Below are positions 34,186-48,387 of a DNA stretch of 64,000 bases, piece by piece. The stretch is from Tilletia caries (lineage: Eukaryota; Basidiomycota; Exobasidiomycetes; Tilletiales; Tilletiaceae). Position 1 is the stretch's first letter. Every line of letters starts with the position of its first letter. The notes under the pieces are model-generated. The model ran no database searches and was not told the DNA's origin. It saw nothing but the letters and a program-made list of their open reading frames with translations. A program made the translations under genes and the position numbers. The stretch spans positions 1,550,001 to 1,614,000 of the forward strand of contig JALUTQ010000007.1 in assembly GCA_032718865.1 (NCBI GenBank). The letters are read 5' to 3'.

Positions 34186-34928
34186 TTCTCATGGTACTCG
34201 TCCGCCTGACCGGGCCTTGCTGCTGGACACTTCTCTTGTTTCCGTCCAAATAGGTGGTCGGTGAAGGTCAGGTCAAGCTTTCTCGTACCATGTCTCGCTC
34301 TTCTCTGTTCCCACCGCTTCCGTCCCTATCTTCTCGCTCTCGAGTATACCATTCACCAATCATCCTTTCTCCATCGTCTGCTGCGATTCTTTCCTTGCTT
34401 TGCGCCCTGTGGCCCGAGCGAGTCGCGTTCCTGCCATTCACGTGACTGCGACGCGGTCGCGTGAACGCGGTTCAGCGCGCTTCAATTTGAACCCCGATGC
34501 GCCCGATCGACGAAAACGTAATTGTGCGCGGCGGCACGTTTAAAAGCGTTCAAGGGTGGCAATTTTATGTATCCCAGTTCCCACACATCAAGCCGAAACT
34601 CAAGTCATCAGCTTCAGGCGCGAAGGTGTAGAAGTGATCGCTGTTTCGTCCGCTCGGAGAGCTCGGCGTAGACTTCTGCGGCTGCAGGCTGCAGGACAGA
34701 AAAGGCCAGACCGGAGATCGGAATCGTGGTTCAGGTCGATGCTCCGAGGTAGTCCATCATGGCCTGACAGCTGGCGCTGAGTGGTTGACTCCGACTTTCT
34801 CGAGTTCTTCCCTCGGCCCCTTCGCTGATGTCGTTCATCGCGTGGCGTCTTTGGTAGAGGACTCGGTCGCGTGGTCTGCGTTGGGTAGACGGGGCCAGTT
34901 GTCTGGTCTTGACGTCGTGAGTGCCGTT
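34186..34928. other. Gene-poor gap after ATG18
   Basis: About 740 bp holding the ATG18 3' region and the 3' side of the next gene. No conserved coding segment, RNA gene or repeat was recognised. Confidence 0.35.
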
Positions 34929-35431
34929 TCAAGGTAGGATGAACCCCCGATCAACTCGGGAAGAGTATAGCAACCGAGCCTGGCCAGCTTTGACGACGAT
35001 CGCGTCGACCTCTCGTCGGATCTTGCGCAGGTAGTCCTTGTCTTCGGCTACCCCCGCCATCAGATCCCAGAACACTCGATCCTCGCTCTGCTGGCACGCT
35101 GACCCGAACCGCTGCAACGTCGGCCAGCTCATGTCTACCACGACCACTGCAGCGTTGCCGTACAGCAGCTCTTCTCCGATTCGTGCAGCCTCACGTGCAG
35201 CTGTGGACGATAGTTTGGGACGGAACTTTGCTCTTCAGCCTGTGCTCTGTTCCTCGCTTCGAGAAGCGCCAAGCAGAAGTCACACTTACCTTTGTCTTGT
35301 AGCAATTGCATTGACGACCCTCGCAATCTCCGTTCCCGGTCCCGGTCCTTGTCCTTATTCTGTCCTCCTCGTTTTTCTCGATCTGGCAGTATAATATGGA
35401 AGTCGAATCCTTGTCCAGCGCCCGGGGTCAT
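34929..35431 (-). CDS. Unrecognised small protein, 5' end uncertain
   Basis: Two exons (35431-35290, 35200-34929) give 137 aa. The N-terminal part (MTPGAGQGFDFHIILPDREK) leads into a charged segment (KDKDRDRERRLRG). The second part looks helical: EAARIGEELLYGNAAVVVV, FGSACQQSEDRVFWDLMAGV, KDYLRKIRREVDAIVVKAGQ. The frame stays open upstream to about 35566, where a CACAG acceptor lies, but no ATG is in that stretch. So either translation begins at 35431 or an upstream exon is missing. A TATA-like TGTATATAG (minus strand) lies at about 35611-35619. No family was recognised. The Fanzor locus begins only about 100 bp upstream of that point. Confidence 0.45.
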
Positions 35432-35662
35432 GTAAGTCGAAATGCCCAAGTTTGGCGCTGGGGTACTCCCACTCGAACCTAGGTTCGGAGCTGGGATGCC
35501 CGAGCCCGGAAAACTGACCGGTGTCGTTTCGTTTGGCGTGAGGCCAGCGACAGCGGGAGTCACTGTGCCGACATGATTGTGCGCACGTTTTCGCTGCTTT
35601 CAAGCCTGTACTATATACAGACTAGTGCAATGGCCAAAGCCAAAGGGGTGCAGCTCCCAAAC

Positions 35663-35682
35663 GCCGATCACGTGTGATCGGC
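35663..35682. repeat. 20-bp inverted repeat (hairpin) downstream of the Fanzor gene
   Basis: GCCGATCAC, a 2-bp GT spacer, then GTGATCGGC. It lies 106 bp past the Fanzor stop codon, just beyond a 90-bp pyrimidine tract (minus strand). It may mark the element end or the end of a guide RNA, but nothing here proves either. Confidence 0.6.
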
Positions 35683-35788
35683 GGCATTTTTCCGGAAAGA
35701 AAAGGCAAAAAGGGGAAAAGAAAGCGAAAAAAGAAAGAGAAAAGAAAATGTAGAGGAAAAGGAAAAAGAAAAAGAGAATATGTCGCTG

Positions 35789-38015
35789 TCACTGGTTGAG
35801 AAAATCATATTTCCAGTGCAGGAAAATGTTTTTCGCGCCATTGACGTCTCGATCCGAGACTGTGAGACATCCGGGGCAGCGGTGGATTTCGCTGCCTCCA
35901 AGTCTGTGATTGACCGTGCCGCACGTTGAGCAGACCTTGGATGTCCAGTCCTCCACCACCTCGACGACCTCCATAGCTTCATTTAATCGGCTTCTGAAGC
36001 GACCGTGCGCCCACGACATCATGGCTCTGACTGTCTTTCGCCCGATCCGCCTTTGACCTCGCCGAGACATCTGGTGCGCGTTGAATGTTGGCAGCAGCAC
36101 AGTGTCGTAATTTTGCTTGAGGTAGCCACGCAGCTTCCAATGGAGCTCGTCGACCAGATGCCGGATTCTTGCACGCAGTCGATTTGCGGCGCGGCGCATA
36201 CGGTAACGCTTTTTTGCTGTAGCTTGGGTTGATCGCGAGATCAATTCATCCAAGTGCGTACCGAGGCGGAAAAGACGCTTGTGGTCTCCATCGCCAAATT
36301 TTGCCGCCATTCCCCGCAAAGGGTCGTAAATCGTGGCAAATGTCCGAACTAAGGTTGTCCCCGGAGTAACGCGGAGGGCTCCGCCTCCGCACTTCCAAAT
36401 TCCGCCGGAATTTTGACTTTTTGAGGCGAGCTCCGCCTCCGCAGACTAAGACAGAGCTGAAAAAACTCAGCTCCGCGTTCCGACGGAATTATACAAAAGT
36501 TGAAATCCCAGCTCCGCGCTCCGCGTTTTTTTCTGTGCGTTTTTCATAATGCTCCTCCGTGCTCCGTGTATGCGGAGCTCGGAATTCCGCGGAATTCCGT
36601 CGGAGCGCAGTGGTGGTATAATTTGCTCTCAGAATGACTCTAACACAATCAGAGCTATACATTCACCATCCGACATTGTTGCGGTATTGACTCCAGTGCT
36701 ATTCTGAAGCTCTCAACGGATGATGATGCCTGTTTTTATCTCCTGCGCGTGTCTCGGCGATGCCTATTTTTTCGGAATTCCGCATATTTCCGCGGAACTT
36801 GGACGGAATTCCGGCGGAGCGCACCCAAAATAAGGTCACGTGACCCCTATTTTTCGACGATCACGTGACCTCACAGCTCCGACGGAATTCCGCGGAAATT
36901 CCGCCGGAATTTTTCGCACAATTTTGACGACTCCGCGCTCCGTACTTTTGACTAGTGGGCCCAGGATTGGGCTCCGCGCTCCGCGTAAATTCCGGCGGAG
37001 TCCTCCAGGCGGACTCCGTGCTTTGTTAAGGTCAAAAATCTCTCAAAAGTGAGCTCCGCGCTCCGCCTCCGGCGGAGCCCTCCGTCGAAGGAGTACGGAG
37101 TCCGCAAAACCCCAGCTCCGCGTCAACTCCGGGGACAACCTTAGTCCGAACGCCGGGGTCAATGGCGCACATTTCTGGCCCACGTGCTGCAGGAACCCGC
37201 ATCTTCTCTTCCCCCATGTCCTTCTGCCAAAGCAGGAACCATGACCCGTTCTCCTGCTTGATGCATGCCCCATCATGCTCCAGCGATGGAACGTCGATCC
37301 CCGTCTGAATCTTGGTCTGGCGCTGACCTGGACCCAGACCGAAATTTGGGATCTTGAGGCATCCTCCAACCCAGTCACGTTTCCGAATTCGGAAGGAGGA
37401 GAAGAGCGCCCGCTTTTTCCGGAACTTCAGCTCGAAGTGCGGAATTTTGCCGTCCCGAACGTCCGCCAAGCCGTTTTGAAGCGCTGTATGGGCGTCAAAG
37501 CACGCCTGCTCCCTGATGCTGTATGGCACCGGAGTCACCCATGACAGGTTCATGAGGGGAAGGCCATCCTCTGTGACTGAATGTTCCCGGACGTCCTTTA
37601 AAGAGGCGTTTGGGTGAGCCTTGAGGTACGCCACCGCCCGGTTGTATGTCCACCTGAATATTCCAGCCGTTTTTCGAAGTGCCTCCTTTTGCTGTGTATT
37701 CGGCCGAAGCCGGGTGCGATACGTCTTCAAGCGCGAGTTGTCTTGGCGCTCTCCAGGCCTGGTCTTACGAGACGGCGGTGGTGGAGGCACAGCGTCGAGG
37801 CGCTGCCGAAGTGTAGCGCTCAGCTGCGTGAGCATCCCACCGATATCTTCATCCGGCACGACTGGATGCGGCAGGAAGGCGTATTTTGGTAGAAACCAAG
37901 TATTGATGGGCGCATTATGCCACTCCGCCGCCTGTTGTGTGCCTTCTACGCCAGGCCACAGCACCGATTCTGGTGCTACTGACCCAATCCAGGGCGCTGG
38001 CGGAGGGTCGGCCAT
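35789..38015 (-). pseudogene. Fanzor (eukaryotic TnpB-like RNA-guided nuclease) gene interrupted by a DNA element
   Basis: Two blocks on the minus strand, 38015-37145 and 36342-35789, are one gene cut by the element at 36349-37144. Together, counting one copy of the TCCGAA duplication, they make 475 codons including the stop, with no frame break. Block 1 has a Pro-rich leader and then the TnpB/Fanzor entry (KTYRTRLRPNTQQKEALRKT, GIFRWTYNRAVAYLK). It ends in RuvC-I AIDPGVRT (catalytic Asp). Block 2 begins FATIYDPLRG and continues through LLPTFNAHQM. It ends with VVEDWTSKVCSTCG, HRCPGC (a four-Cys zinc finger) and RuvC-III DRDVNGAKN (catalytic Asp). The usual RuvC-II Glu is replaced by Asn in FNAH; the Glu of VVEDWTSK fits the rearranged active site known for Fanzors. 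As found, translation of block 1 runs into the element and stops after 36 foreign residues. Confidence 0.88.
36349..37144. mobile_element. 796-bp non-autonomous DNA transposon (MITE-like) with TIRs and 6-bp TSD
   Basis: Both ends carry the perfect 19-bp inverted repeat CTAAGGTTGTCCCCGGAGT (36349-36367; inverted at 37126-37144), followed on each side by ACGCGGAG with one gap. The flanks are TCCGAA at 36343-36348 and again at 37145-37150, a 6-bp target-site duplication. No transposase or other long coding frame is inside. The interior is full of short palindromic words: CGGAATTCCG, TTCCGCGGAA, GCTCCGCGCTCCG and GGTCACGTGACC. These occur repeatedly on both sides, so the whole element could fold into long hairpins. 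The superfamily is not decided by these data; a 6-bp duplication is unusual. Confidence 0.9.
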
Positions 38016-38054
38016 GGTGATCTGTATATAACAAATAAGAGAAAAAATAGGAGC

Positions 38055-38345
38055 GGTGCTGGTCAGTCTCTTGATCTTACGATGATGACCCAGAAAAAAA
38101 GAAAAATGAAAAAAGAAAAAAAATGAAAAGAAAAGAAAAGAAAAGAAAAGAATGAAAAAGATCGGTGCTGGTCACGTGTTTGGACTCTGCTGGTCACGTG
38201 ATTGGTCTTTTAATCTAATAATGATAAGGAGAAAAGAAAGATGAAAAAAAGAAGGAGCGGTGCTGGTCACGTAGTTGGACTCTGCTAGTCACGTGGTTGG
38301 TCTTTTAATCTAATAATGATAAGGAGAAAAGAAGAAAAAGAAAAT
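38055..38345. repeat. Direct tandem repeat, about 95 bp, upstream of the Fanzor start
   Basis: Two close copies start at 38164 and 38259 (GGTGCTGGTCACGT, then TTGGACTCTGCT(G/A)GTCACGTG, then TTGGTCTTTTAATCTAATAATG and ATAAGGAGAAAAGAA). A shorter, diverged copy of the first words starts at 38055. A/G-rich tracts separate them, including (AAAAG)n at about 38125-38150. If transcription starts near 38.6 kb these repeats lie in a 5' untranslated intron. Confidence 0.8.
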
Positions 38346-38473
38346 AAAAGAAAACGAAAAAAAACGGAAATAGAATGGCCGCGAACAAAAACTACAGAAC
38401 GAAAAACGGCCGAAAACAATACACAAAAAGACAGAAAAACGAATCAAAAACCGAAAACATGAAAAACACTCAC

Positions 38474-38630
38474 CTTGAACTTTCAGCGAGGGACGGATGT
38501 TAACGCCGAAGAGTTTGTTTGACAGACAGTCACGTGGCAAAAACAAACTATCAGTCGACAAGAGGGCGAAGAGCCGAAGGGGGGGGAAGAGAGCGGGTGC
38601 AGCTGGTGGGATGGGGCTTGTTATATAGCT
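38474..38630 (-). promoter_or_regulatory. Promoter and putative 5' untranslated exon feeding the Fanzor gene
   Basis: On the minus strand CTATATAAC (about 38622-38630) is a TATA-like box. A stretch without a usable ATG follows and ends at AAAGTTCAAG with a GTGAGT donor at 38473. The next good acceptor on that strand is TATATACAG at 38027-38035, directly before the Fanzor ATG (ACCATGG context). This is inferred from signals only; the exon could equally belong to another leftward gene. Confidence 0.35.
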
Positions 38631-38980
38631 TCGTGGCTGCAGCCATGACGTAATGCACACTGGTCACCAACGCACAGACATCGAATACCATGGAAGCCCG
38701 TGGAAGCGAGTTTCATCCCCCCCTTTCCTCTCTCTGGTGATGGTGATCTCAGATGCTGGATGAGCTCAAGCCAGCTGAGGATCAGCTCGAGCGACCCGAA
38801 AGCCACGAGCCACTCACTCTCTCTCTCACTCACTCGCCCGCGCTCACCTCTTCTCCCGCCGCCCAAGTCCATCGCATTATTCATCCAATCACGCTCCCCA
38901 TCACCTCGACACAGTCCTTACTCCTTCTACAAGTCATCACATGCACGCTCCCCTGAGCTCACATCGGTCGAATCCACGCA

Positions 38981-39690
38981 TTGGCATCCTCCTCCTCAAG
39001 CACCCCACCGCCCGTCTTCTTCAACCAGTCGATCAACAACCAGCTCACGAGTTTGCAGGCGTGCACTTATAGCCTTGAGACCGCCAATCAGACTGTGAGT
39101 TTTGTGATGCTTTGTATGCGCATGTATGCACACATGGGAGTTCATGCTGACACCCTCTTTCTTTTCGCCTTTGCAGGTGGTCCACAACAGTATTGAGTCC
39201 GGAGACATGCAGCTCATCGGCGAGGCATAGTGAGTTTTTCAGTGCAATTTCGACGCGTCACGTTCCCTTGCTCACCAGTTATCACCGGCTATTTTTCTTT
39301 GTGCTGGACCGCGTCGCGCCTGCGGAGAAGACGCACGAGAAGAACGGCGAGAACGGGTTGGCGGAGTGGGGCGATATCCAGACCACAACAACCAAAGCAT
39401 ACCATCCAGGTGAGTGTGCCCTTGCTCCATCGTGCTCTGCCCGTCATCTGACGCGTCTCCATTGTCTGTGCGCTGGGGAACGACCCGGCGCGTCGTGAAT
39501 CTGAGAAGGACAGAGCAGGATGCGCTTTGGGAGGGCGTTGTCGAGCGTGAGTACATTGGGTTTCTGTCGTTCTTACTATATGCAGACATACGTGCTCACC
39601 TGCTTTACCGAGTCATTCGACCCTACAAAGCAGGCTCGGAACTTGGCGCCGCCCCTCCGACTCGGCGCCTTCAAACTCGCCCCACACTCT
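38981..39690 (+). CDS. Unrecognised protein fragment, start and end uncertain
   Basis: Exons 38981-39094, 39177-39229, 39279-39409, about 39509-39546 and from 39586 join in frame with good GTGAGT donors. The readable protein has FFNQSINNQLTSLQACTYSL, NSIESGDMQLIGEAYYHRLF, FFVLDRVAPAEKTHEKNG and TYVLTCFTESFDPTKQARNL. No family was recognised. There is no ATG in frame before the first exon (an in-frame stop lies at about 38954), so a short upstream exon is missing from the model. The 3' end runs into a CDF transporter fragment in another frame near 39700, so the gene is probably truncated or chimeric. Confidence 0.4.
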
Positions 39691-39704
39691 CCTCTGCCCG
39701 CCAG

Positions 39705-39944
39705 GTCGAACTCGACCTTGTCATGCATCCCCAGACACCTCTCTGGCTGTCGCACGACATCTCGCAGGACCTCCAAGACCGCATCGAGGACCTGCCCATG
39801 GTCGAGCGTGCTTTCATCCGTGCGTGAACCCTCGAGCTGATCCTGAAGAGAAGTAATAAACTGACCCTCTCCACCCTCTCTTAACTCTGAATAGACGTCG
39901 ACCACGAGACGGATCACCGGCCTGAACATCGCAAGAACGTCTGA
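39705..39944 (+). pseudogene. C-terminal fragment of a cation diffusion facilitator (CDF) transporter
   Basis: Two exons (39705-39819, 39895-39944) encode VELDLVMHPQTPLWLSHDIS, QDLQDRIEDLPMVERAFI and HVDHETDHRPEHRKNV with a stop. This is the cytosolic C-terminal domain of fungal CDF/cation-efflux proteins, including the metal-binding HVDHE segment. No membrane helices or earlier exons lie upstream; the sequence changes character right at the acceptor at 39704. So only the last 55 codons of a gene that usually has more than 400 are present. Confidence 0.75.
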
Positions 39945-40230
39945 ATGACCCGGGCCAACTTCGTACCATGTATTCGGGCCCAGGTCGCTTCTCATACATA
40001 CACATCTCACCACAGTCTCTGCGTGCTCTTCCCCCCTTCTTGCCCCCACTTCTATCCTATCCAAATACATACACGCATAGTATCAGCATAACTTGCTTCC
40101 CTCTCTACACATTGACCCACCATTCATACGATCTGACGCATCCCATGGGGATTGGGAACATGACCATGAGCCATCGATGAGGTTCAATGAGCGGTTCCAC
40201 GAACACATAAGGATGGAGTACATCATGCGA

Positions 40231-41800
40231 CTACAACTTGGAGAAGGCAGGCTTCTGCTTCGCCATCACAGCCTGAGTTGCGATCGGAATACTATCAATG
40301 GAGAGGAGGAGGTCGTCCCAATTGAGGTCAGCCTGAACACGCTCCTCTTTGTCGCGAAGAGAATAGAACTCACTCCTCCGTCTGCAGCATGGCCGCGTTC
40401 CAAGCGGCCGTGAAGGCCAGGCCTGCGTCGACGGGGTGGTCCCGGGCGTGGAGCAGGATCGCCTTCGTGCTTTGGACGGCGATGGGCGATTTGGAGGCGA
40501 TGTCCTTGGCCAAGGAGAGTGCCGCCGCTGAGAGAATCCACATAGCATGGGAATGGAATGGGGTCAGTTAGAGAAAGAGTTAAAAGGCGAGCCTCAGAAA
40601 GAAGCATTGGGAGGAGTAGAAGAAGATTGCTCACCGACGACAGCGGTTTGACCTTGCTCGGTCACTTTGCTGGCGAAGCCGATGGCGAGCGCCTCGCGGG
40701 CGTCGAATGTTCGGGCTGAGTATGCCAGTTCGCGGGCGAGGGAGTCGTTACCTACCGTCTTGGGGAATCGTTGGAGGGTGCCGATGTCCGCTGCGAGACC
40801 GATGCTGTAGATGGAAAGGGGTGGTGGTGGTTAGGCGCAGGGCAACGGACGTAGATGAGAAGGTTAGGGGCGAGGGTACTCACTCTACTTCCTACATCCC
40901 GTACGTCGTACCGATCAAAGAGAAGAGATTCAGGATAAAGAAGGTACTGAAACCTACACAAAGAAGAGAAAGTAACCCACCACTCACCCGGATCGACAGC
41001 CTCAGCCTCAAAAGAAGGGCTTGCCAGCAGGGTTCGGGAGGGGCCAGAATTCAATGCCTTGCCGGTCTTAATGCTCTGAGCCGTTCCGCAAGCCGGGAGT
41101 CTTCGTCCCCAGACCGCGCAGTCGAAGATGGCCCCGCCTCAGCGGCCGCAGCAGGCGCAGCCCCAGAACCCGCGCCCGCGCCCACACCCGAGCTCGGTCC
41201 CACCTCCGACCCGTCCGCAATCAACTTCCTCTCCTCCCTCTCCTTCTCCGCCTGCTCCTTCACATCGCCCTATCCATCCCTTTAACGACGCTGGTCATGC
41301 TGCCCGTGACCTGGCGCATCGTGACAGCAGTCTCGACCCGGGAACTAACGGCGTCGATCCGACTTCCCAGGCGAAGCAGGTTCAGCGACTCGTTCTTCTT
41401 CCGGATCGCATTGGACGCGTAGATACGGGCGCCTTCGGTGTTTCCTTGTGCGAGGACCTGTGGTGGTGAGTGGGAAAGAGGCCGGGTTTATGAGCCGCAG
41501 GTACACAAGAGGAGAGGGGCAGGGGAGGGGATTGCATACCTTCTTCAGCTTTGCCTTCTCGGCGACCTCGTCCTTGGCTGCCTTCTTTGCCTGTCGCTGG
41601 AGGGACTTGGCTGTGAACTGCAGGGGCCGCGCGGGAAGGACCGACGGTCAAGACCGGCGGTGAAGGCTCGGCCCTCGCCACTCAAGACGACGACGGCGAC
41701 GTCGTTATCGGTGCTGATGGTGTCGAAGAGCTTGTGAAGCTCTCTCCACATCCTGTATTTACAGACAGAGAACGAGTTCAGCAATGGACCTGCCCCCAGA
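40231..41800 (-). pseudogene. Scrambled dienoyl/enoyl-CoA isomerase (ECH1-like) gene pieces
   Basis: Reading leftward, about 41760-41660 encodes MWRELHKLFDTISTDNDVAV and VVLSGEGRAFTAGLD, the oxyanion-hole region of the crotonase family. Exons 40804-40635 (GLAADIGTLQRFPKTVGNDS, LAYSARTFDAREALAIGFAS), 40527-40374 (SKSPIAVQSTKAILLHARDH, FTAAWNAAML) and about 40332-40231 (ending KPAFSKL) cover the C-terminal half. The family acts on unsaturated fatty acyl-CoAs in beta-oxidation. The start, the middle third (from GLD to the helix before EVD) and the last splice frame are missing or broken. In the gap sits a DID2/CHMP1 piece. I found no set of splice sites that gives one open protein. Confidence 0.7.
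41051..41650 (-). pseudogene. DID2/CHMP1 (ESCRT-III) gene pieces with an internal deletion
   Basis: The exon 41617-41540 encodes FTAKSLQRQAKKAAKDEVAE plus KAKLKK. The next, from 41457, encodes [40 protein letters not shown] and [20 protein letters not shown], classic CHMP1/Did2. The frame then meets TGA at 41260-41262. Directly after, another frame resumes a Did2-like tail ([20 protein letters not shown] ... LAERLRALR, a MIT-interacting motif). The core helices between (about 50-60 residues) and the N-terminal exon are absent. The piece is embedded inside the ECH1-like remnants, on the same strand. Confidence 0.75.
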
Positions 41801-41815
41801 GCAATCAACGGCGAG

Positions 41816-42150
41816 CTGCCGGCACGCCCATCAACGAGTCCACCGCCATCCTCGCGACCCAGCCGGGAGCTAAGCTTGTCGGAATTTGCATCGCCCTCGA
41901 CCGACAGGAACGTGCTGCTGCCGACGATGATGTTCCGGACAAGCGTTCGGCCATCCAGAAGGGCGAGAAGAACTACGGCGTCAAGGTCACAAGCGTGTGC
42001 ACCCTGGAGAACATCATCACATATCTCCGCCAGCAAGGTACGTTACCCGGCTTGCTCTGCCCAGACGTTCTTCCAGGGTCCACCAAGCGTCATAGGCATC
42101 TCACATCTCTTCTTGCTGCACCCAGGATTCCCCATCCTCACTAGTCACCA
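41816..42150 (+). pseudogene. C-terminal fragment of orotate phosphoribosyltransferase
   Basis: The sequence opens abruptly at AGTPINESTAILATQPGAKL, the end of the PRPP-binding loop region, and goes on VGICIALDRQERAAADD, then SAIQKGEKNYGVKVTSVCTL and ENIITYLRQQG. This is the C-terminal third of fungal URA5-type orotate phosphoribosyltransferase (pyrimidine synthesis). The donor GTACGT follows at 42036. The PRPP motif VxIIDDVxTAG itself is cut: only its last residues (AG) remain. No upstream exons exist, because the ECH1-like remnant lies there in the opposite orientation. Confidence 0.78.
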
Positions 42151-42269
42151 CCCTCTTTCTCCTCTGAGGCCGAAGACAAATCCGCAAGCATCGATCATCG
42201 TGGGTCACACTTGGTGAGTGCACGCACGACCAGAGGTATATAAGGGGGGCCTCCGTCCTCATAAGGGGG

Positions 42270-43081
42270 TTCCGGGAGGCAGGATCGTCGTCCTCAAGCA
42301 CGAGAAGTGTACCTCCCGCGACCACCTGCTCGAAGAGCTCGCCAAAGTCGAAGCCGTGGGCGGCGAAGGTCTGATGCTTCGCAAGGCGGGCAGCCAGTAC
42401 GACCACCGACGGTCGCGCTCGCTCCTCAAGGTGAAGACGTTCTACGATGCCGAGGCGATCGTCATTAGTATTGAACAAGGCGAGGGCAAGAACTCGGGTC
42501 GTATGGGTGCCCTTGGATGTCAGATGGAGAACGGAGCGCGGTTCAAGGTGAGAAGCTAGGCCGGAGAAATGGTGTATGCCGATCGAGACACTCTTTGTGG
42601 CCGTCCTTTGCTGACTGATACGAAATTCTTTCCTGGCAGGTCGGAACGGGTTTCACGGACTCGCACCGCAACAACCCGCCTCCGGTCGGGTCTATCATCA
42701 CCTATAAGTTTCAGGAACTGTCCCAGGACGGAATTCCTAGGTGTGTCTAATGATCGTGATGCCATCCACTTTCCAGCTCTACGGTCACTGACATCGATAC
42801 TCCTTGATCAGGTTCCCGGTCTTCAAGGGCATTGGTGAGCAGTCCACATGTTCTCTCACGCATAAAGAGCGACCAAGCTGTCCTAGGCCTGACTTATTCA
42901 ACCTTGCATTTGTTCAACAGCCGCCGACAAGACTAAGCCGAAAGACGCCGTCGTCCGCTCGACCCGGCTGCGCCCTGATAAAGCAGCCGCCGTCGCTTTG
43001 ACTGCCGCTACAGAGGCGTCTACGGAGGCGAGCTCTTCCGGCACTCAGAAGACGGCGCCGGCGAAGAGGCAGAAGAAGTAG
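42270..43081 (+). pseudogene. C-terminal half of an ATP-dependent DNA ligase
   Basis: Exons about 42270-42547, 42640-42740, 42812-42834 and 42921-43081 stay in frame to a stop. They encode VVLKHEKCTSRDHLLEELAK, VEAVGGEGLMLRKAGSQY (motif IV-like), SLLKVKTFYDAEAIV (motif V), then the OB-fold GRMGALGCQMENGARFKVGT, TYKFQELSQDGIPRFPVFKG and a basic tail ending KRQKK. It resembles small ligases of the viral/bacterial type found in some fungi. The nucleotidyltransferase start with the catalytic KxDG lysine is not in the window. A TATATAAG at 42236-42243 might drive a short transcript, but a ligase without the lysine cannot form the AMP adduct. Confidence 0.78.
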
Positions 43082-43414
43082 TGATGCTGTTGGCCTGATC
43101 CTGGCAGGCAGAACAGTCTGGTGCGATTTCCTACGCCCCACGAAGAACGAAACGACAAGCTCTGACGAAAGAGGGAATGGGGCAGGAGTGACACGGGAAA
43201 GGAAAGGGGGTATGCAAAGGGCAAAGTGGGGGAGGTTTGTTTCCGTTTCGTTTCGAGGTTCGAGATCGCAAGAAAAAAACAAAATGACATCGTTCTTCGT
43301 TCGTTTACGAAATTTCCCTGTGTTGCAATTCCAAGATCGTACAGACGAGAAATAAGAGAACCAGGTTCAGTCTTGAGAAGAAAAGAGAGTAGAGGGGGGA
43401 GCGAGGTTGAGCGC

Positions 43415-43645
43415 TGCTTTCTTCCGCCCAGGCCGGAACGGCTTGCTGCCCAGGAACCGCGTCCGCGGATCCGTCAACTGTCCCGAGATCGAGTCTAGGA
43501 CGGTGCGCAGGAGGACGCCATTCACCAGCCCGATATTCACAAAGAGCGTCAGATGATTCCGATCCACCGCCGCATCCCTCATCTCCGCCATGACAATGCT
43601 CGACGGCAACACCAAGGGCAACAAGGACGGCGTCAATCTCTGAGT
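43415..43645 (-). pseudogene. Internal fragment of RSE1/SF3B3 (U2 snRNP SF3b subunit)
   Basis: The minus strand reads SIVMAEMRDAAVDRNHLTLF, VNIGLVNGVLLRTVLDS and QLTDPRTRFLGSKPF, a conserved segment of the SF3b130/Rse1 WD-like propeller. Only about 70 codons are preserved; on both sides the sequence no longer resembles the 1200-residue protein. It lies between the ligase remnant and SPT5, in the opposite orientation to both. Confidence 0.72.
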
Positions 43646-44000
43646 GCATCAACCTCTGCACTCGCCCTGGACAACCTTTCGAGGATGGGTGGGGCCGAAA
43701 CAGGATGGAAAAGGAGGGGCGGTCAACGCGAGTGAGATGAGATGGACAACGATCGAGATGGGGACCCTTGCAAGCAGACAAGCAGAAGACATCGCTCATT
43801 CGCTCATCCTTCCTTCCTTCTCTTTTTCGGTTCACTGCTCACGCTCACCCTTCTTTCCCCCTTCCTTCCCCCTATTTCTGCTGCCTGCCCATCACCTAGC
43901 TGCAGCGCTCCACTACCCACAATCAGCAAAGCATGGCCTACCCAGTTTCCTCTTCCGCTCTCCCCCCTTCGAGGCTCCGGTCTCCGCCAAAAAGTCCACA

Positions 44001-47000
44001 ATGCTCGCCCTCACCTGGCAGGGCAAGAACTCGGTCGTCATGAAGTCCATGCCAGTCCCACACCTCGTCGACCCAACCGACGCCCAACCCAAGAAGCGCA
44101 GAGCCGTCGAAGACGACGACAATGACGACGAGGTCGAGCGTCGCATTGCGGACTTGTCCGACAACGAGGACGAGATCGACGACGAGATCGATGACGAGGA
44201 CGACGACGAGATCGACGACGAGGACGACGAGTTTGGAAGACGCCGCAAGAAGAAGAAGCGCGCCCGCAACAAGTTCCTCGATATCGAAGCCGAGGTCGAC
44301 GATTCCGACGAGGAGATTGAGGACGAGGAGGAAGGCTTTGGCCCTGACGGTGAGCTGCAACTCAGCCTGATCTCTCTCTTTCTCTGTGGAACCGCGAGCT
44401 CGTACTGACAATTCCAAGATACCACAGACGGATTCATCGACGAGGAGGACATCTACGACACTGCTGCCTCCTGCATTCGAGCAGCAGCCGGAAACGCGAA
44501 TCTCGATGGCATGCGGAGACTGGAAGAGAACCAGACCGCCGAAGAATGGGCACACAACGCCGAAGAAATGGCGCGCAACTTCCGCAAGAAATACCGTCGT
44601 ATCGCAGGTCGCAAGGACATAGGCACCTCCAACGACGTCCCCCGTCATGCCCTCCTGCCCGATCTCGAAGACCCAAGTCTTTGGGCCGTGTCCGTCAAGA
44701 TTGGGAGAGAGCGCCAAATCGTCATGACCATCATGCGCAAGGCTTGCGCGTTCCTTCAAGGCATCAAGGGTCAGGCTCCGGCTCCCATGGCCATCCACTC
44801 CGCCTTTTGCCGTGACTCGATCCCAGGCAAGATTTACGTCGAGTCTCGTCGACGCGAATCCGTCATAGAGGCCCTCGCCGGCATCGTCGGAGTCTATGCT
44901 CGAACCGCGGACAAGCTCCTCCTCGTTCCCATCGAGGAGATGGCAGACCTACTCAAATTCACCAAGATCGAACACGAACTCAAGGTCGGAGGATGGGTAC
45001 GCTTCAAGCAGGGGCACCACACAGGTGATCTTGCTCAAGTCATCGAAGTCGGTGAGAATGGAGAAGAAGTCCGGATCAAGTTCGTGCCACGCATCGACAT
45101 GAATCCATCCGAGCAAGATTACACCGAGGACAAGCGCGGTGTCAAGCGACAGCGGAACTTGGGCAGCGGCAAAAATGCTATCAACAAACGACCACAGCGG
45201 CACACCGCACAGCCACAACGCTTCGTGCCGGCCGAGGTTCAGAGGGTATATCCTGGTGAAGTAGCCAAGCACGGTAAGGACATCTACAAGTTCCACAACG
45301 AAGAGTACCGCAACGGCTTCTGCGAGAAGGCTGTCAGCGTAACTTCCCTCGTCGTCGAGGATGTGCAGCCTACGCTACAAGAGATCGAACTCTTCCAAGG
45401 CGTCACCGCGGAAGTCAATGTGAGTGAATCGGTCAATCTACGCCAGTTGGCTCAGCTCAAGCGGAAGGCCAACGAAGTCGTCGTCCAGCCCGGTGACCAT
45501 GTCGAGGTCTTTGAAGGCGAGCAGCGCGGCGTCCGCGGTACCGTCGATGCCATCAACGGACAGATCATCATCATCAGCATGGAGCACGATGAAATGGACG
45601 GCACCAAGGTCGAAGTCCAGCTCGATCAGGTCCGCAAGACCTTCAAGCCCGGTGACCACGTCAAGGTCGGCTTCGGCGACCACACCGACGAGACCGGTAT
45701 GGTGCTTAAGGTCGAAGGCGAGACGACCACCTTCCTCTCCGATCTGACGGTGAAGGAGGTTGCCGTCTTCTCCAAAAACCTGCGCGAGGCCGCCGAGGTC
45801 GGTTCCGGTCTGGCCACAGTCGCTGGCTTCAACGTGCACGATCTGGTGATGTGCAACCATCGGGCGGCGGTGATTTTCAACATCGAACGCGTAGGGTTCC
45901 GGATCCTTGACGAAGAAGGGAATACGCACCTGGTCCCTCCGAGATCGCTGTTGCTGTTGAAGAACGCCTTCAGTATCTGCATTGACCACGAAGGTCATGA
46001 GATCCGTAAGGGTGATACGATGAAGGAGACGGAGGGAGATGTGAGTTCATGAAATACTTTCCGCCATCACGCGTCCTATATGCTAACGGAACTGACACGT
46101 GTCTCTCTACCTTCAGTCTCCGCGCAACGGCAAAGTCATTCAGCCATACCAGTCAGGTGTAGTCTTCCTCTTCAGTCGAGACATATCCGAGAACAACGGT
46201 GTCTGGTATGCGTCTCCGAGCCGCCTGACCCCCTTGACCCCACACCACATCGGCACATCGGTCAAAGACAGTCTCGACAAGATGAACCCGGCAAGGAACA
46301 TGCAGCTGATGGCTTCGCGTGGCAATGATCCAACCCCAACGCCACATGTTGCCCTGAGTGGGCGAACGAAGGACTACTTGAAGGGCCGACACGTGGTGGT
46401 GGTGAAGGGACCCTTCAAGAGCTACCGCGGGATCATCAAGGAGACGTTAGCGGATGACAAGGCATACGTTGAGCTGCACACGACAAACAGGAATGAGACG
46501 TTCCCCCTCGCACTCCTGAAGGAGAAAGAGTGAGTCACTTGGCAGAGCTGCTGCATTTATCTGCCTCAACGCGCTGCTTGGCTTGCTCACCTTGAGATCT
46601 ATTCCTTGTACAGTCCTGATACCGGCCAATCAAAGCCTCTGGCGATCGGCGGCGGGCCTGGGGCCAACTCTGGCCCTGCGCAAGGCAAGAGCAACATGAG
46701 GACGCTCTACAGCTCCGGGTCAAACGGGATCATGGGACCACCTATGGGAGGTGGCACTCCCTGCGGCGGAATGGCGCCAGAGACAGGGCGCACGCCTCCC
46801 ATGGGCTTTGCCGGTGCCAGCACTCCAATGGGTGCAGGGCATTGCAACGACGGCAAGAAGACTCCGTTCCAGGCCCCGAGTGGGGTCAAGTCATTTGCTG
46901 GGCCGGGGCAAAGGCTGGGAGGACCGACACCGAGGTCGGCGGCTGCTGTGTATGGTGCCCGGACGCCGAAATGGTCGGCGACGGGCAAGAAGACGCCTGC

Positions 47001-47034
47001 TATGACAAAGAGTACTGCATCCTTCGTTGGCTGA
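44001..47034 (+). CDS. SPT5: SPT5 transcription elongation factor
   Basis: Four exons (44001-44349, 44428-46040, 46117-46529, 46614-47034) encode 931 aa. An acidic N-terminus (Asp/Glu runs) is followed by a basic patch and the NGN domain (PSLWAVSVKIGRERQIVMTI, IPGKIYVESRRRESVIEAL). Several KOW modules come next (GGWVRFKQGHHTGDLAQVIE, QPGDHVEVFEGEQRGVRGTV, KPGDHVKVGFGDHTDETGMV, KGRHVVVVKGPFKSYRGIIK). The tail has short Gly/Thr/Pro repeats (GGRTP-like, KKTPFQAPS, GARTPKWS), the CTR region that is phosphorylated and recruits capping and Paf1 factors. With Spt4 it clamps RNA polymerase II. The start at 44001 gives MLALTWQGKN; a nearby in-frame ATG at 44040 is also possible. It appears complete, directly right of the gene-fragment region. 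Confidence 0.93.
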
Positions 47035-48387
47035 CTCTCTGTTTCCCCCTCTGCTTCACTTCTCCCCCCCATCTCCTTTCCACTCCAACCCAACCTCTGC
47101 CTCTCTTCTCTCCAACTCCCTCCCCCTCCCACAACGCGCATAATCACTTTACGGAGAATGGCAACTTTACCCCCATCCATTCTCACGTTTACGGACTTTC
47201 GCAAGAGCGACCCTTTTCCCCGCTTATACTCACCACACGAGTGCCCTTTTGACCCAGCGCTCGTGAGGTCCATATGTTTCATTCACGCTCAATAGGGGTA
47301 CATCCTTTCTCTCTCGCTTTCTCTCTTTCTTTTGCTTTGAATCAACTCGTTCCTATACATTGCACGATGCATCTTCCGTTGACGGAGGCTTAAATCCGTC
47401 GCGAACAGACCTTGAAAATTCATTCGGGGCGCGCACCGACCAGCTCGTCCAGAACTCTGAGTGAGAACCAGAGGCCTCTATGTCTCTCGTCGAAGATACA
47501 GAGAACAGCGAGTCTGCGACAATCAATGAATGAATGTCACCGTTCCATGTTGTCCCAGATCTCACACTCAGTCCGGAGTCCCGACTCACCGCGAGGCCAG
47601 AGCCAGTCCTTCCCAATTGCATTTGCGACTTGCGACGATCTGCGAACCGTCGCCTGATGTTGCACTTCTTCCACCAACCCTGGTGATGGACTTGCGGGCT
47701 GTGGCGTGGTGGCGAAGTCGGCGTTTACATACATCTCTGACAAAAGTTACTTCCTTCTCACTTCTTTCCAGTTTCCACCAGCACAGGCAGGCGGTAGGCG
47801 GTAGGCAAGGGCCTTCCGGGGCTGCAGTTTCCTGGCCGAAGGCACTGGACCACTGACACCCGTCGTTGATGCTTCTCTCTTTGTTCCCCCGGTTGCATAG
47901 CCACCACTCTGACTTAGCTTCGGACGAGGGTCGTAGGCCACAGGTTGTTCCTCGCGTGCCTCCGTGCCCTCATTAGGTAGCGCATTCGCGCGTGGGCACG
48001 GTCGCACGACTACTGTTCTTGTTAGCCTTGGCTTCCATTATCCGACTGCGGCTGCCTTGCACGAGGTCTATTATCTGGGGTTTGTGCTATCACAAATGAA
48101 TCCTCCGGTTCGATCCCGCCTGGCAACGTTGCTGCGAATTGACCTGCCCTCGTGCTCGGGTGCGCATGTCCACCTTCTCCAGGCCTTGATATGGTCCAAG
48201 CTCACTCTTCTCTCTCCCCTCATCCTCCTCACGACCACCCCTCCCAATTTTTGTTACAGTGCCTTCCTTCCCCCATTGCTCATTCCCCCGCGCTCTCAGC
48301 CTCAACGCTGTGGTCCTCCACCCGTCGCTACCTGCCAAGTGATTCTGCTGTCGCTTCAACGCTTCTCCATCATCTGCATCTCCAGAC
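47035..48387. other. Intergenic region, SPT5 terminator and bHLH promoter
   Basis: About 1.35 kb with long pyrimidine tracts at 47040-47130 and 47300-47335. No conserved coding sequence or RNA gene was recognised. GGTTCGATCCC at 48108-48118 resembles a tRNA B box but has no matching stems. Confidence 0.35.

What the first reader, a model, noticed from the sequence alone, without database searches (positions are those of the whole stretch)
35789..38015. A Fanzor nuclease gene broken inside its RuvC-I motif by a DNA transposon
Seen: two minus-strand blocks carry the start and the end of one TnpB/Fanzor-like protein. RuvC-I (AIDPGVRT) ends block 1; the zinc finger and RuvC-III (DRDVNGAKN) end block 2. 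The interruption is exactly a 796-bp element with a 6-bp duplication. Without it and one duplicate, the frame is 474 codons with no stop. Known: Fanzors are RNA-guided DNA nucleases carried by eukaryotic mobile elements. Inferred: the copy was intact until recently, since no other frame damage is visible.
Basis: partly seen in the sequence, partly recalled or inferred. Interest (0 to 1): 0.9.

Follow-up and report, generated by a model that had tools for sequence, protein, structure and literature searches.

The report
Fanzor gene broken by hAT transposon
In what is most likely a wheat-bunt fungus, one copy of a repeated gene for an RNA-guided DNA-cutting protein (a Fanzor) was split, apparently recently, by a short jumping element, while intact sister copies remain; the break is ordinary, but the gene's carrier, full of host-gene fragments, is unusual.

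Summary
Confirmed, with corrections. A Fanzor frame (minus strand) is split just behind its catalytic DPG (RuvC-I). It is a non-autonomous hAT-type element: its end sequence occurs 205 + 201 times in the genome, and 18 of 18 other copies checked have identical 8-bp duplications. All 19 fetched same-family Fanzor copies spanning the site lack the insert, so it is no family intron; 5 of these 19 keep a complete frame. The host is probably a Tilletia. The protein carries the published Fanzor fingerprint (DPG plus displaced glutamate) and resembles Fanzor2, yet a Pfam search found no IS607-type serine recombinase in the genome. The gene lies at the one constant end of a roughly 12-kb carrier. That end is a conserved, foldable segment (possible omega-RNA); the rest is a collage of housekeeping-gene fragments (SPT5, 6PGD, ATG5, OPRTase, DNA ligase). 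The nested insertion is ordinary; a Fanzor2-like gene in such a carrier without a recombinase is the interesting part. How the carrier moves is unsolved.

The parts
37144..38015 (-). Fanzor block 1: start codon to the catalytic DPG of RuvC-I (AIDPGVRT); N-terminal HTH_OrfB domain
36350..37143 (.). 794-bp non-autonomous hAT-type element, ends TAAGGTTGTCCCCGGAGT / ACTCCGGGGACAACCTTA; stops in all three Fanzor-strand frames
36342..36349 (.). 8-bp target-site duplication, left copy
37144..37151 (.). 8-bp target-site duplication, right copy
35789..36349 (-). Fanzor block 2: rest of RuvC, displaced catalytic glutamate (EDWTSKVC), C4 zinc finger, RuvC-III (DRDVNGAKN), stop codon
35592..35705 (-). Candidate omega-RNA scaffold: conserved predicted hairpins, closing stem GCTGC/GCAGC at the carrier terminus; the window copy has lost one T of the closing stem
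35592..35612 (.). Constant terminus of the carrier; 18 further sites in the genome
38016..38912 (.). Upstream region shared by Fanzor copies; beyond about 38907-38912 (38833 in one) copies run into different host-gene 5' ends
38913..43830 (+). Collage of host-gene fragments: 6-phosphogluconate dehydrogenase (about 39177-39251), ATG5 (about 39468-39566), enoyl-CoA hydratase (about 41629-41760, minus strand), orotate phosphoribosyltransferase (about 41815-42039), DNA ligase (about 42.2-42.6 kb)
43830..47373 (+). SPT5-like gene copy plus trailing fragments; SPT5-like DNA recurs near five other Fanzor copies
34514..35581 (-). Copy of the 3' part of a GCN2-like gene, 10 bp from the carrier terminus
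47479..47730 (.). Copy of the DNA just downstream of the GCN2-like gene, at the far side of the carrier

Best explanation
The window holds one member of a multiplied Fanzor2-like RNA-guided nuclease family of a (probable) Tilletia fungus, knocked out by a non-autonomous hAT-type element that inserted with an 8-bp duplication directly behind the RuvC-I DPG. Shown: insert and duplication, empty site in all 19 sister copies examined, complete sister frames (5 of 19), Fanzor fingerprint, little decay of this copy. Inferred from the family: an intact copy makes a nuclease that uses an RNA from its own 3' end, with the flanking DNA as guide, to cut unoccupied sites and so favour retention of its carrier. 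In this copy the first catalytic aspartate is cut off from the glutamate and the last aspartate, so neither half can form the active site alone; any mobility left would rest on proteins made elsewhere. The carrier, a gene-fragment collage with one constant end, most likely spread by copying of the rolling-circle (Helitron-like) kind; that last step is a guess.
For: Domains in both pieces. Empty site in 19 of 19 copies. 8-bp duplications in 18 of 18 other element copies fetched; family size; 74 hAT dimerisation-domain matches in the genome. Complete frames in 5 of 19 copies, all 5 with the fingerprint; the pattern also fits 3 further, incomplete copies. The fingerprint's two halves are in the window pieces. 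dN/dS 0.29-0.53 in comparisons among three intact copies and with the window blocks; few private changes. 3' region folds with z -3.4 and is 98% identical between 13 copies, against 96% for block 1 between 7. No serine recombinase found in the genome.
Against: No expression data, so production of protein or RNA by any copy is unshown. 14 of 19 sister copies did not pass the complete-frame test. The strict fingerprint fits only 3 of 11 named Tilletia homologs; 3 of the other 8 are short pieces. No covariation supports the RNA fold (0 of 36 pairs with two-sided change), and Rfam gave no match. Helitron mobilisation lacks its own signs: no CTRR end, no target preference seen, no Helitron_like_N match in the window carrier. 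No autonomous hAT bounded by these ends was found among 6 transposase loci examined. Structure prediction could not be run.
Confidence: 0.9

Rival explanations
1. The 794-bp segment is a normal spliced intron of the Fanzor gene.
For: It lies inside an otherwise open frame.
Against: 19 of 19 sister copies lack it; its ends occur about 200 times each way, and 18 of 18 other copies checked have 8-bp duplications; the GT/AG pairs at its very ends would shift the frame (my reading; inner pairs not examined).
Confidence: 0.02
2. The two halves act as a split nuclease: block 1 and block 2 are made separately and reassemble.
For: Both halves are open and hardly decayed.
Against: The block 2 frame has no ATG before an interior methionine; promoters were not tested; absence of decay is equally explained by a young insertion; catalytic residues lie on different pieces.
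Confidence: 0.03
3. The Fanzor copies spread not by transposition but as passengers of segmental duplication, extrachromosomal circles or break repair, which also explains the gene-fragment collage.
For: No far end, no duplication and no transposase found for the carrier; pieces from a GCN2-like locus flank it in circularly permuted order; an inverted pair on contig C5 shares its flank.
Against: One end is nearly constant to the base at 18 further sites, and all their flanks look unrelated by eye except for that one pair; the end coincides with the end of a predicted RNA fold, which random duplication does not predict.
Confidence: 0.35
4. The protein is a bacterial TnpB present through contamination or very recent transfer.
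For: Beyond Tilletia the listed matches are mostly unnamed or named as transposases, at 31-44% identity (best 120 of 512 listed).
Against: 20 same-family loci, the window's included, on many contigs; homologs named T. laevis, T. caries, T. indica, T. maclaganii and T. walkeri; the DPG + displaced-E fingerprint.
Confidence: 0.02

Closest known systems
Fanzor2 (for example mimivirus L79, PDB 9b0l; its filing as Fanzor2 is recalled)
   Same: Best solved-structure match of the intact sister copy (E 4e-18, residues 280-464); DPG RuvC-I, displaced glutamate, C4 zinc finger, compact size
   Different: Canonical Fanzor2 lies in IS607 elements with a serine recombinase; none was found in this genome
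Fanzor2* of Yoon et al. 2023 (PMC10711439; passages read)
   Same: Fanzor2 carried outside IS607; those passages name an alga and molluscs
   Different: Theirs sit in cut-and-paste transposons with inverted repeats and duplications; here one constant end, no inverted repeat found, carrier full of host-gene fragments, in a fungus
Chlamydomonas CRe-1/2/3 Fanzor1 Helitron2 elements (Bao and Jurka 2013, PMC3627910; abstract and passages read)
   Same: Constant 3' end, variable 5' end, occasional extra captured DNA, many copies
   Different: Those are Fanzor1 with Helitron2 ends and a T-rich target; I saw no target preference here and did not test for Helitron2 ends beyond reading the terminus
hAT-superfamily MITEs (features recalled)
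   Same: 8-bp duplications, ends TAAGG...CCTTA, short, high copy number
   Different: Nothing notable; rich in repeated CTCCGCG and GGAATTCC words
Gene-capturing Helitrons and Pack-type elements
   Same: Several unrelated host-gene fragments in one mobile unit, some with introns kept (by eye)
   Different: No CTRR end and no inverted repeats identified; a paper on Pleurotus (PMC4289320, passages read) reports that its helitrons do not capture host gene fragments

Membership tests
Fanzor (TnpB-derived eukaryotic RNA-guided nuclease) | DPG in RuvC-I plus glutamate six residues before the zinc finger (PMC10711439) | tested here: met
   Full pattern in 5 of 5 complete copies; DPG in block 1 and E-zinc finger-D in block 2 of the window. 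Pattern fits 104 of 120 listed homologs but only 3 of 11 named Tilletia ones
Fanzor (TnpB-derived eukaryotic RNA-guided nuclease) | C4 zinc finger followed by RuvC-III aspartate | tested here: met
   PF07282 over cut-off; D, E and D columns invariant in 46 aligned homologs
Fanzor (TnpB-derived eukaryotic RNA-guided nuclease) | Structured RNA at the 3' end running into the flank | tested here: inconclusive
   Fold z -3.4, conserved, ends at the terminus; no covariation, no transcript data, no Rfam match
Fanzor (TnpB-derived eukaryotic RNA-guided nuclease) | RNA-guided DNA cleavage | not testable with these tools
   -
Canonical IS607 Fanzor2 element | Serine recombinase TnpA | tested here: not met
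   0 matches to PF00239 in the held genome; control rings in 10 of 14 genomes
hAT superfamily (insert) | 8-bp target-site duplication (rule recalled) | tested here: met
   Window and 18 of 18 other copies fetched; inserts with related ends and 8-bp duplications in L015, L017, L069 and L072, and one of the same family in L117
hAT superfamily (insert) | Short inverted ends of the type YARNG (consensus recalled) | tested here: met
   TAAGG...CCTTA, 18 bp perfect
hAT superfamily (insert) | Mobilising transposase with the same ends | tested here: inconclusive
   74 hAT dimerisation-domain matches in the genome; none of 6 loci examined is bounded by these ends
Helitron (carrier) | 3' CTRR end with nearby hairpin | tested here: not met
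   Hairpin predicted, end reads GCAGCG or GCAGC
Helitron (carrier) | RepHel protein in an autonomous relative with the same ends | tested here: inconclusive
   60 Helitron_like_N matches in the genome; none lies in the window carrier; one lies about 10 kb from a Fanzor copy on C23, linkage unclear

The most novel reading that the evidence does not exclude
Tilletia carries a fungal Fanzor2 lineage that has lost its recombinase and become the one constant module of gene-collecting mobile units: the omega-RNA end defines the unit, and nuclease-made breaks with repair copying (or circles) keep adding housekeeping-gene fragments to the other end.
Probability: 0.15. Interest if true: 0.85.

Novelty: new variant of a known kind. 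Interest (0 to 1): 0.5.

Why it matters
The insertion itself is a clean example of one mobile element silencing another, with natural intact sister copies as control. The wider family matters more. In the passages I read, published work places Fanzor2 in IS607 elements and, outside them, in an alga and molluscs. A multi-copy fungal Fanzor2-like gene without any detected serine recombinase, at the single constant end of carriers full of host-gene fragments, bears on how Fanzors pass between transposon types and on whether such nucleases help shuffle host genes. Strain collections of bunt fungi would make both questions testable.

Tried and rejected
Spliced intron: rejected (19 of 19 empty sites). 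IS607 origin with its own recombinase: rejected for this genome as held. tRNA genes in the window: none by ARAGORN with the bacterial code. Inverted repeat of the carrier terminus elsewhere in the window: 3 hits against 2 expected, none at the carrier's ends; this test is weak, because the window's own terminus has a deletion and was not found by the same pattern. Rfam: no match in 35500-39000. Fanzor-less terminus on C5 (L072) as an autonomous version: about 9 kb of other sequence fills the Fanzor position; no transposase was recognised by eye and no domain search was run on it. Target-site preference at the constant end: none seen by eye. Structure prediction was tried three times and never accepted.

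Tree: 107 of 123 sequences were used; the 16 without a recognisable RuvC-to-zinc-finger stretch were dropped, among them 8 of 11 named Tilletia homologs. The 5 Tilletia tips kept (two of them this genome's own) fall in a group of 7 (support 0.95) with two unnamed proteins. This is weak evidence on origin.

Literature, all in the held open-licence library: 0 papers hold both Tilletia and Fanzor; 0 hold Tilletia, hAT and MITE as whole words. Among the listed results of wider Fanzor searches (15 of 75; 8 of 8; 10 of 422; 10 of 54) none was on Fanzor in Tilletia by title. Subscription papers and supplements were not searched.

Full report
WHAT IS THERE. The window is contig C7:1550001-1614000 of a 38.1-Mb genome in 40 contigs. 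The nearest named homologs of the Fanzor come from Tilletia laevis (91%) and T. caries (96%, partial). A listed abstract gives 38.18 Mb for a T. caries assembly.

THE BREAK. Block 1 runs from the start codon at 38015 down to the insert, and block 2 from the insert down to the stop at 35789. The insert is 36350-37143, 794 bp, with perfect 18-bp inverted ends. GTCCGAAC is duplicated at 36342-36349 and 37144-37151. Within the insert the Fanzor strand has 10, 6 and 7 stops in its three frames. DPG is in block 1 (residues 286-288); block 2 holds the glutamate, zinc finger and last aspartate.

THE INSERT. A search of the same genome scored 40 of 246 candidates, the window's own included; the other 39 are 94-99% identical, and all but two of the 40 span positions 1-794. 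Its terminal 18-mer occurs 205 times forward and 201 times reverse with at most one mismatch, against 0 and 0 for the reversed control. Of the 39 other scored copies I fetched both ends of 18 (and one end of one more, unused); all 18 have identical 8-bp duplications. An 8-bp duplication with TAAGG...CCTTA ends is the hAT pattern (recalled knowledge), and 794 bp is too short for a hAT transposase. The genome has 74 matches to the hAT dimerisation domain, but a partner with these ends was not found in the 6 loci examined. A scan of the fetched loci found inserts with related ends and 8-bp duplications inside the 3' RNA-like region of the C33 copy (L015), upstream of the gene in the C35 copy (L017), further on in the C35 carrier (L069) and in L072, and one of the window's own family in L117.

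SISTER COPIES. With block 1 as query the genome gives 32 matches and with block 2 it gives 38; many are pieces of the same loci. From I count 20 same-family loci, the window's included. Nineteen fetched loci span the insertion site, and in 19 of 19 the two flanks join with the 8 bp present once (18 identical 8-mers, 1 with a substitution). Of these 19, five hold a complete open frame from the usual start to the usual end (L003, L004, L008, L010, and L005 with one changed residue near its start); the other 14 did not pass this test, through stops, truncation, other inserts or, for L014, a changed RuvC-I stretch that my filter missed. In pairwise comparisons dN/dS is 0.29-0.48 among L003, L004 and L010, and 0.29-0.53 for the window blocks against them. 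In the window copy I count 5 private codon changes (2 silent, 3 replacing, no stop), against 13 other copies for block 1 and 8 for block 2. Those copies look constrained while they spread, and the window copy has hardly decayed since its break; most copies of the family are nevertheless broken.

IDENTITY OF THE PROTEIN. The intact L004 copy passes NCBIfam guided_TnpB (103.5 bits, cut-off 100) and Pfam HTH_OrfB_IS605 and Cas12f1-like_TNB. Its best solved relative is mimivirus L79, a Fanzor2 by recalled knowledge; none of the 16 matches at E up to 1 bears the name Fanzor. Yoon et al. (PMC10711439, passages) define Fanzors by DPG plus a glutamate six residues before the zinc finger, and state that this combination occurs in under 1% of TnpB homologs. 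All 5 complete copies fit the published pattern, with 132 residues between DPG and E in the three measured; so do 104 of the 120 listed homologs. Against a simple picture, only 3 of 11 named Tilletia homologs fit the strict pattern: of the other 8, three are short pieces, four have DPG but no full zinc-finger pattern, and one has the zinc finger but no DPG. The D, E and D columns are invariant in an alignment of 46 chosen homologs. I conclude Fanzor, Fanzor2-like. Against filing it as a canonical IS607 Fanzor2: no resolvase-type recombinase was found in the genome by Pfam search.

THE 3' END. Downstream of the stop lies a pyrimidine-rich spacer of variable length and then about 110 nt that are 98.3% identical among 13 copies, against 96.0% for block 1 among 7. 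The whole 197-nt stretch of the window folds better than all 200 shuffles (z -3.4). The consensus fold of the last part has hairpins and a closing stem GCTGCA/TGCAGC whose last bases are the carrier terminus. None of 36 pairs shows two-sided change, so the fold is supported by energy and conservation only. This is where omega-RNA lies in TnpB/Fanzor elements (established knowledge). The window copy has lost one T in the closing stem.

THE CARRIER. The terminus GCTGCATTTCAAGCCTGTACT, with up to 3 mismatches, occurs at 18 sites (1 match in the control); the window's own form has a deletion and comes on top. I read the flanks of all 18: they look unrelated by eye except for an inverted pair on C5 that shares its flank. 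Of the 18 distinct termini (window included) 3 lack the outermost C. Seventeen of the 18 sites lie within about 10 kb of a Fanzor match; C5:897797 does not. Upstream of the gene, copies share sequence up to window 38907-38912 and then enter different genes on the opposite strand: proteasome beta-2 (L004, L016), and an unassigned gene starting MTADAATTSTSP or variants of its start (L008, L010, L019, L072). L006 leaves earlier, at 38833, into a proteasome fragment followed by a prohibitin-like piece recognised by eye that no Pfam model matched. In the window the same position leads into a collage: 6PGD, ATG5, enoyl-CoA hydratase and DNA ligase fragments (only ATG5 passes the Pfam cut-off), orotate phosphoribosyltransferase and a long SPT5-like gene, each with at least one further copy in the genome. 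Much of it recurs at 97-99% some 9-17 kb from the C1 Fanzor, and SPT5-like DNA at 69-95% lies within about 2-14 kb of five other Fanzor copies, so the collage seems to travel with the gene. Introns look kept in several pieces (by eye), which argues against copying from mature mRNA.

HOW IT MIGHT MOVE. No far end, duplication or transposase was found. A Helitron-like process fits one constant end, a nearby hairpin, lack of duplication and gene capture; Chlamydomonas Fanzor1 elements behave in part like this (PMC3627910, passages). Against it: no CTRR end, no target preference, no Helitron_like_N match in the window carrier. Break repair or circular intermediates are hinted at by a GCN2-like locus on C35 (named from Pfam HGTP_anticodon2, a weak kinase match below its cut-off, and recall). 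A copy of its 3' part (34514-35581, 99%) lies 10 bp from the constant end, and DNA from just beyond its 3' end lies at the far side (47479-47730, 94%), in circularly permuted order. I leave the mechanism open.

VERDICT. A MITE inside a transposon gene is ordinary. The carrier lifts interest to the middle of the scale.

Noticed in passing
window 34514-35581 and 47479-47730; L119 2688-4053: The 3' part of a GCN2-like gene and its downstream DNA flank the Fanzor carrier in circularly permuted order relative to the locus on C35, as if a circle had been opened between them.
   Followed up: partly
window 43830-47373: SPT5-like DNA at 69-95% identity recurs near five other Fanzor copies (C23 twice, C40, C35, C32); an unlinked copy on C30 may be the host's own gene.
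   Followed up: partly
own genome C34:1248194, 1264432, 1271313; C28:824908, 840206; C4:2391331, 2338569: A second, divergent Fanzor group (27-37% identity to block 1, 38-56% to block 2); several members have stops.
   Followed up: no
C5:1949179 and C5:1956519 (L012, L021): Two Fanzor copies in inverted orientation share the same flank beside the terminus: a palindromic duplication after insertion.
   Followed up: no
L015, L017, L069, L116: Fanzor carriers are hit repeatedly by hAT-type elements, one of them inside the RNA-like 3' end, and a hAT transposase domain lies on C7 beside the L003 copy.
   Followed up: partly
P0004 (T. indica annotated protein): Fanzor frame annotated in one protein with a BET domain (PF17035).
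   Followed up: no
L072 (C5:897700-907600): A carrier with the constant end and the upstream region but about 9 kb of other DNA in place of the Fanzor gene.
   Followed up: partly
own genome: 60 matches to Helitron_like_N; the genome is rich in Helitron-type elements.
   Followed up: no
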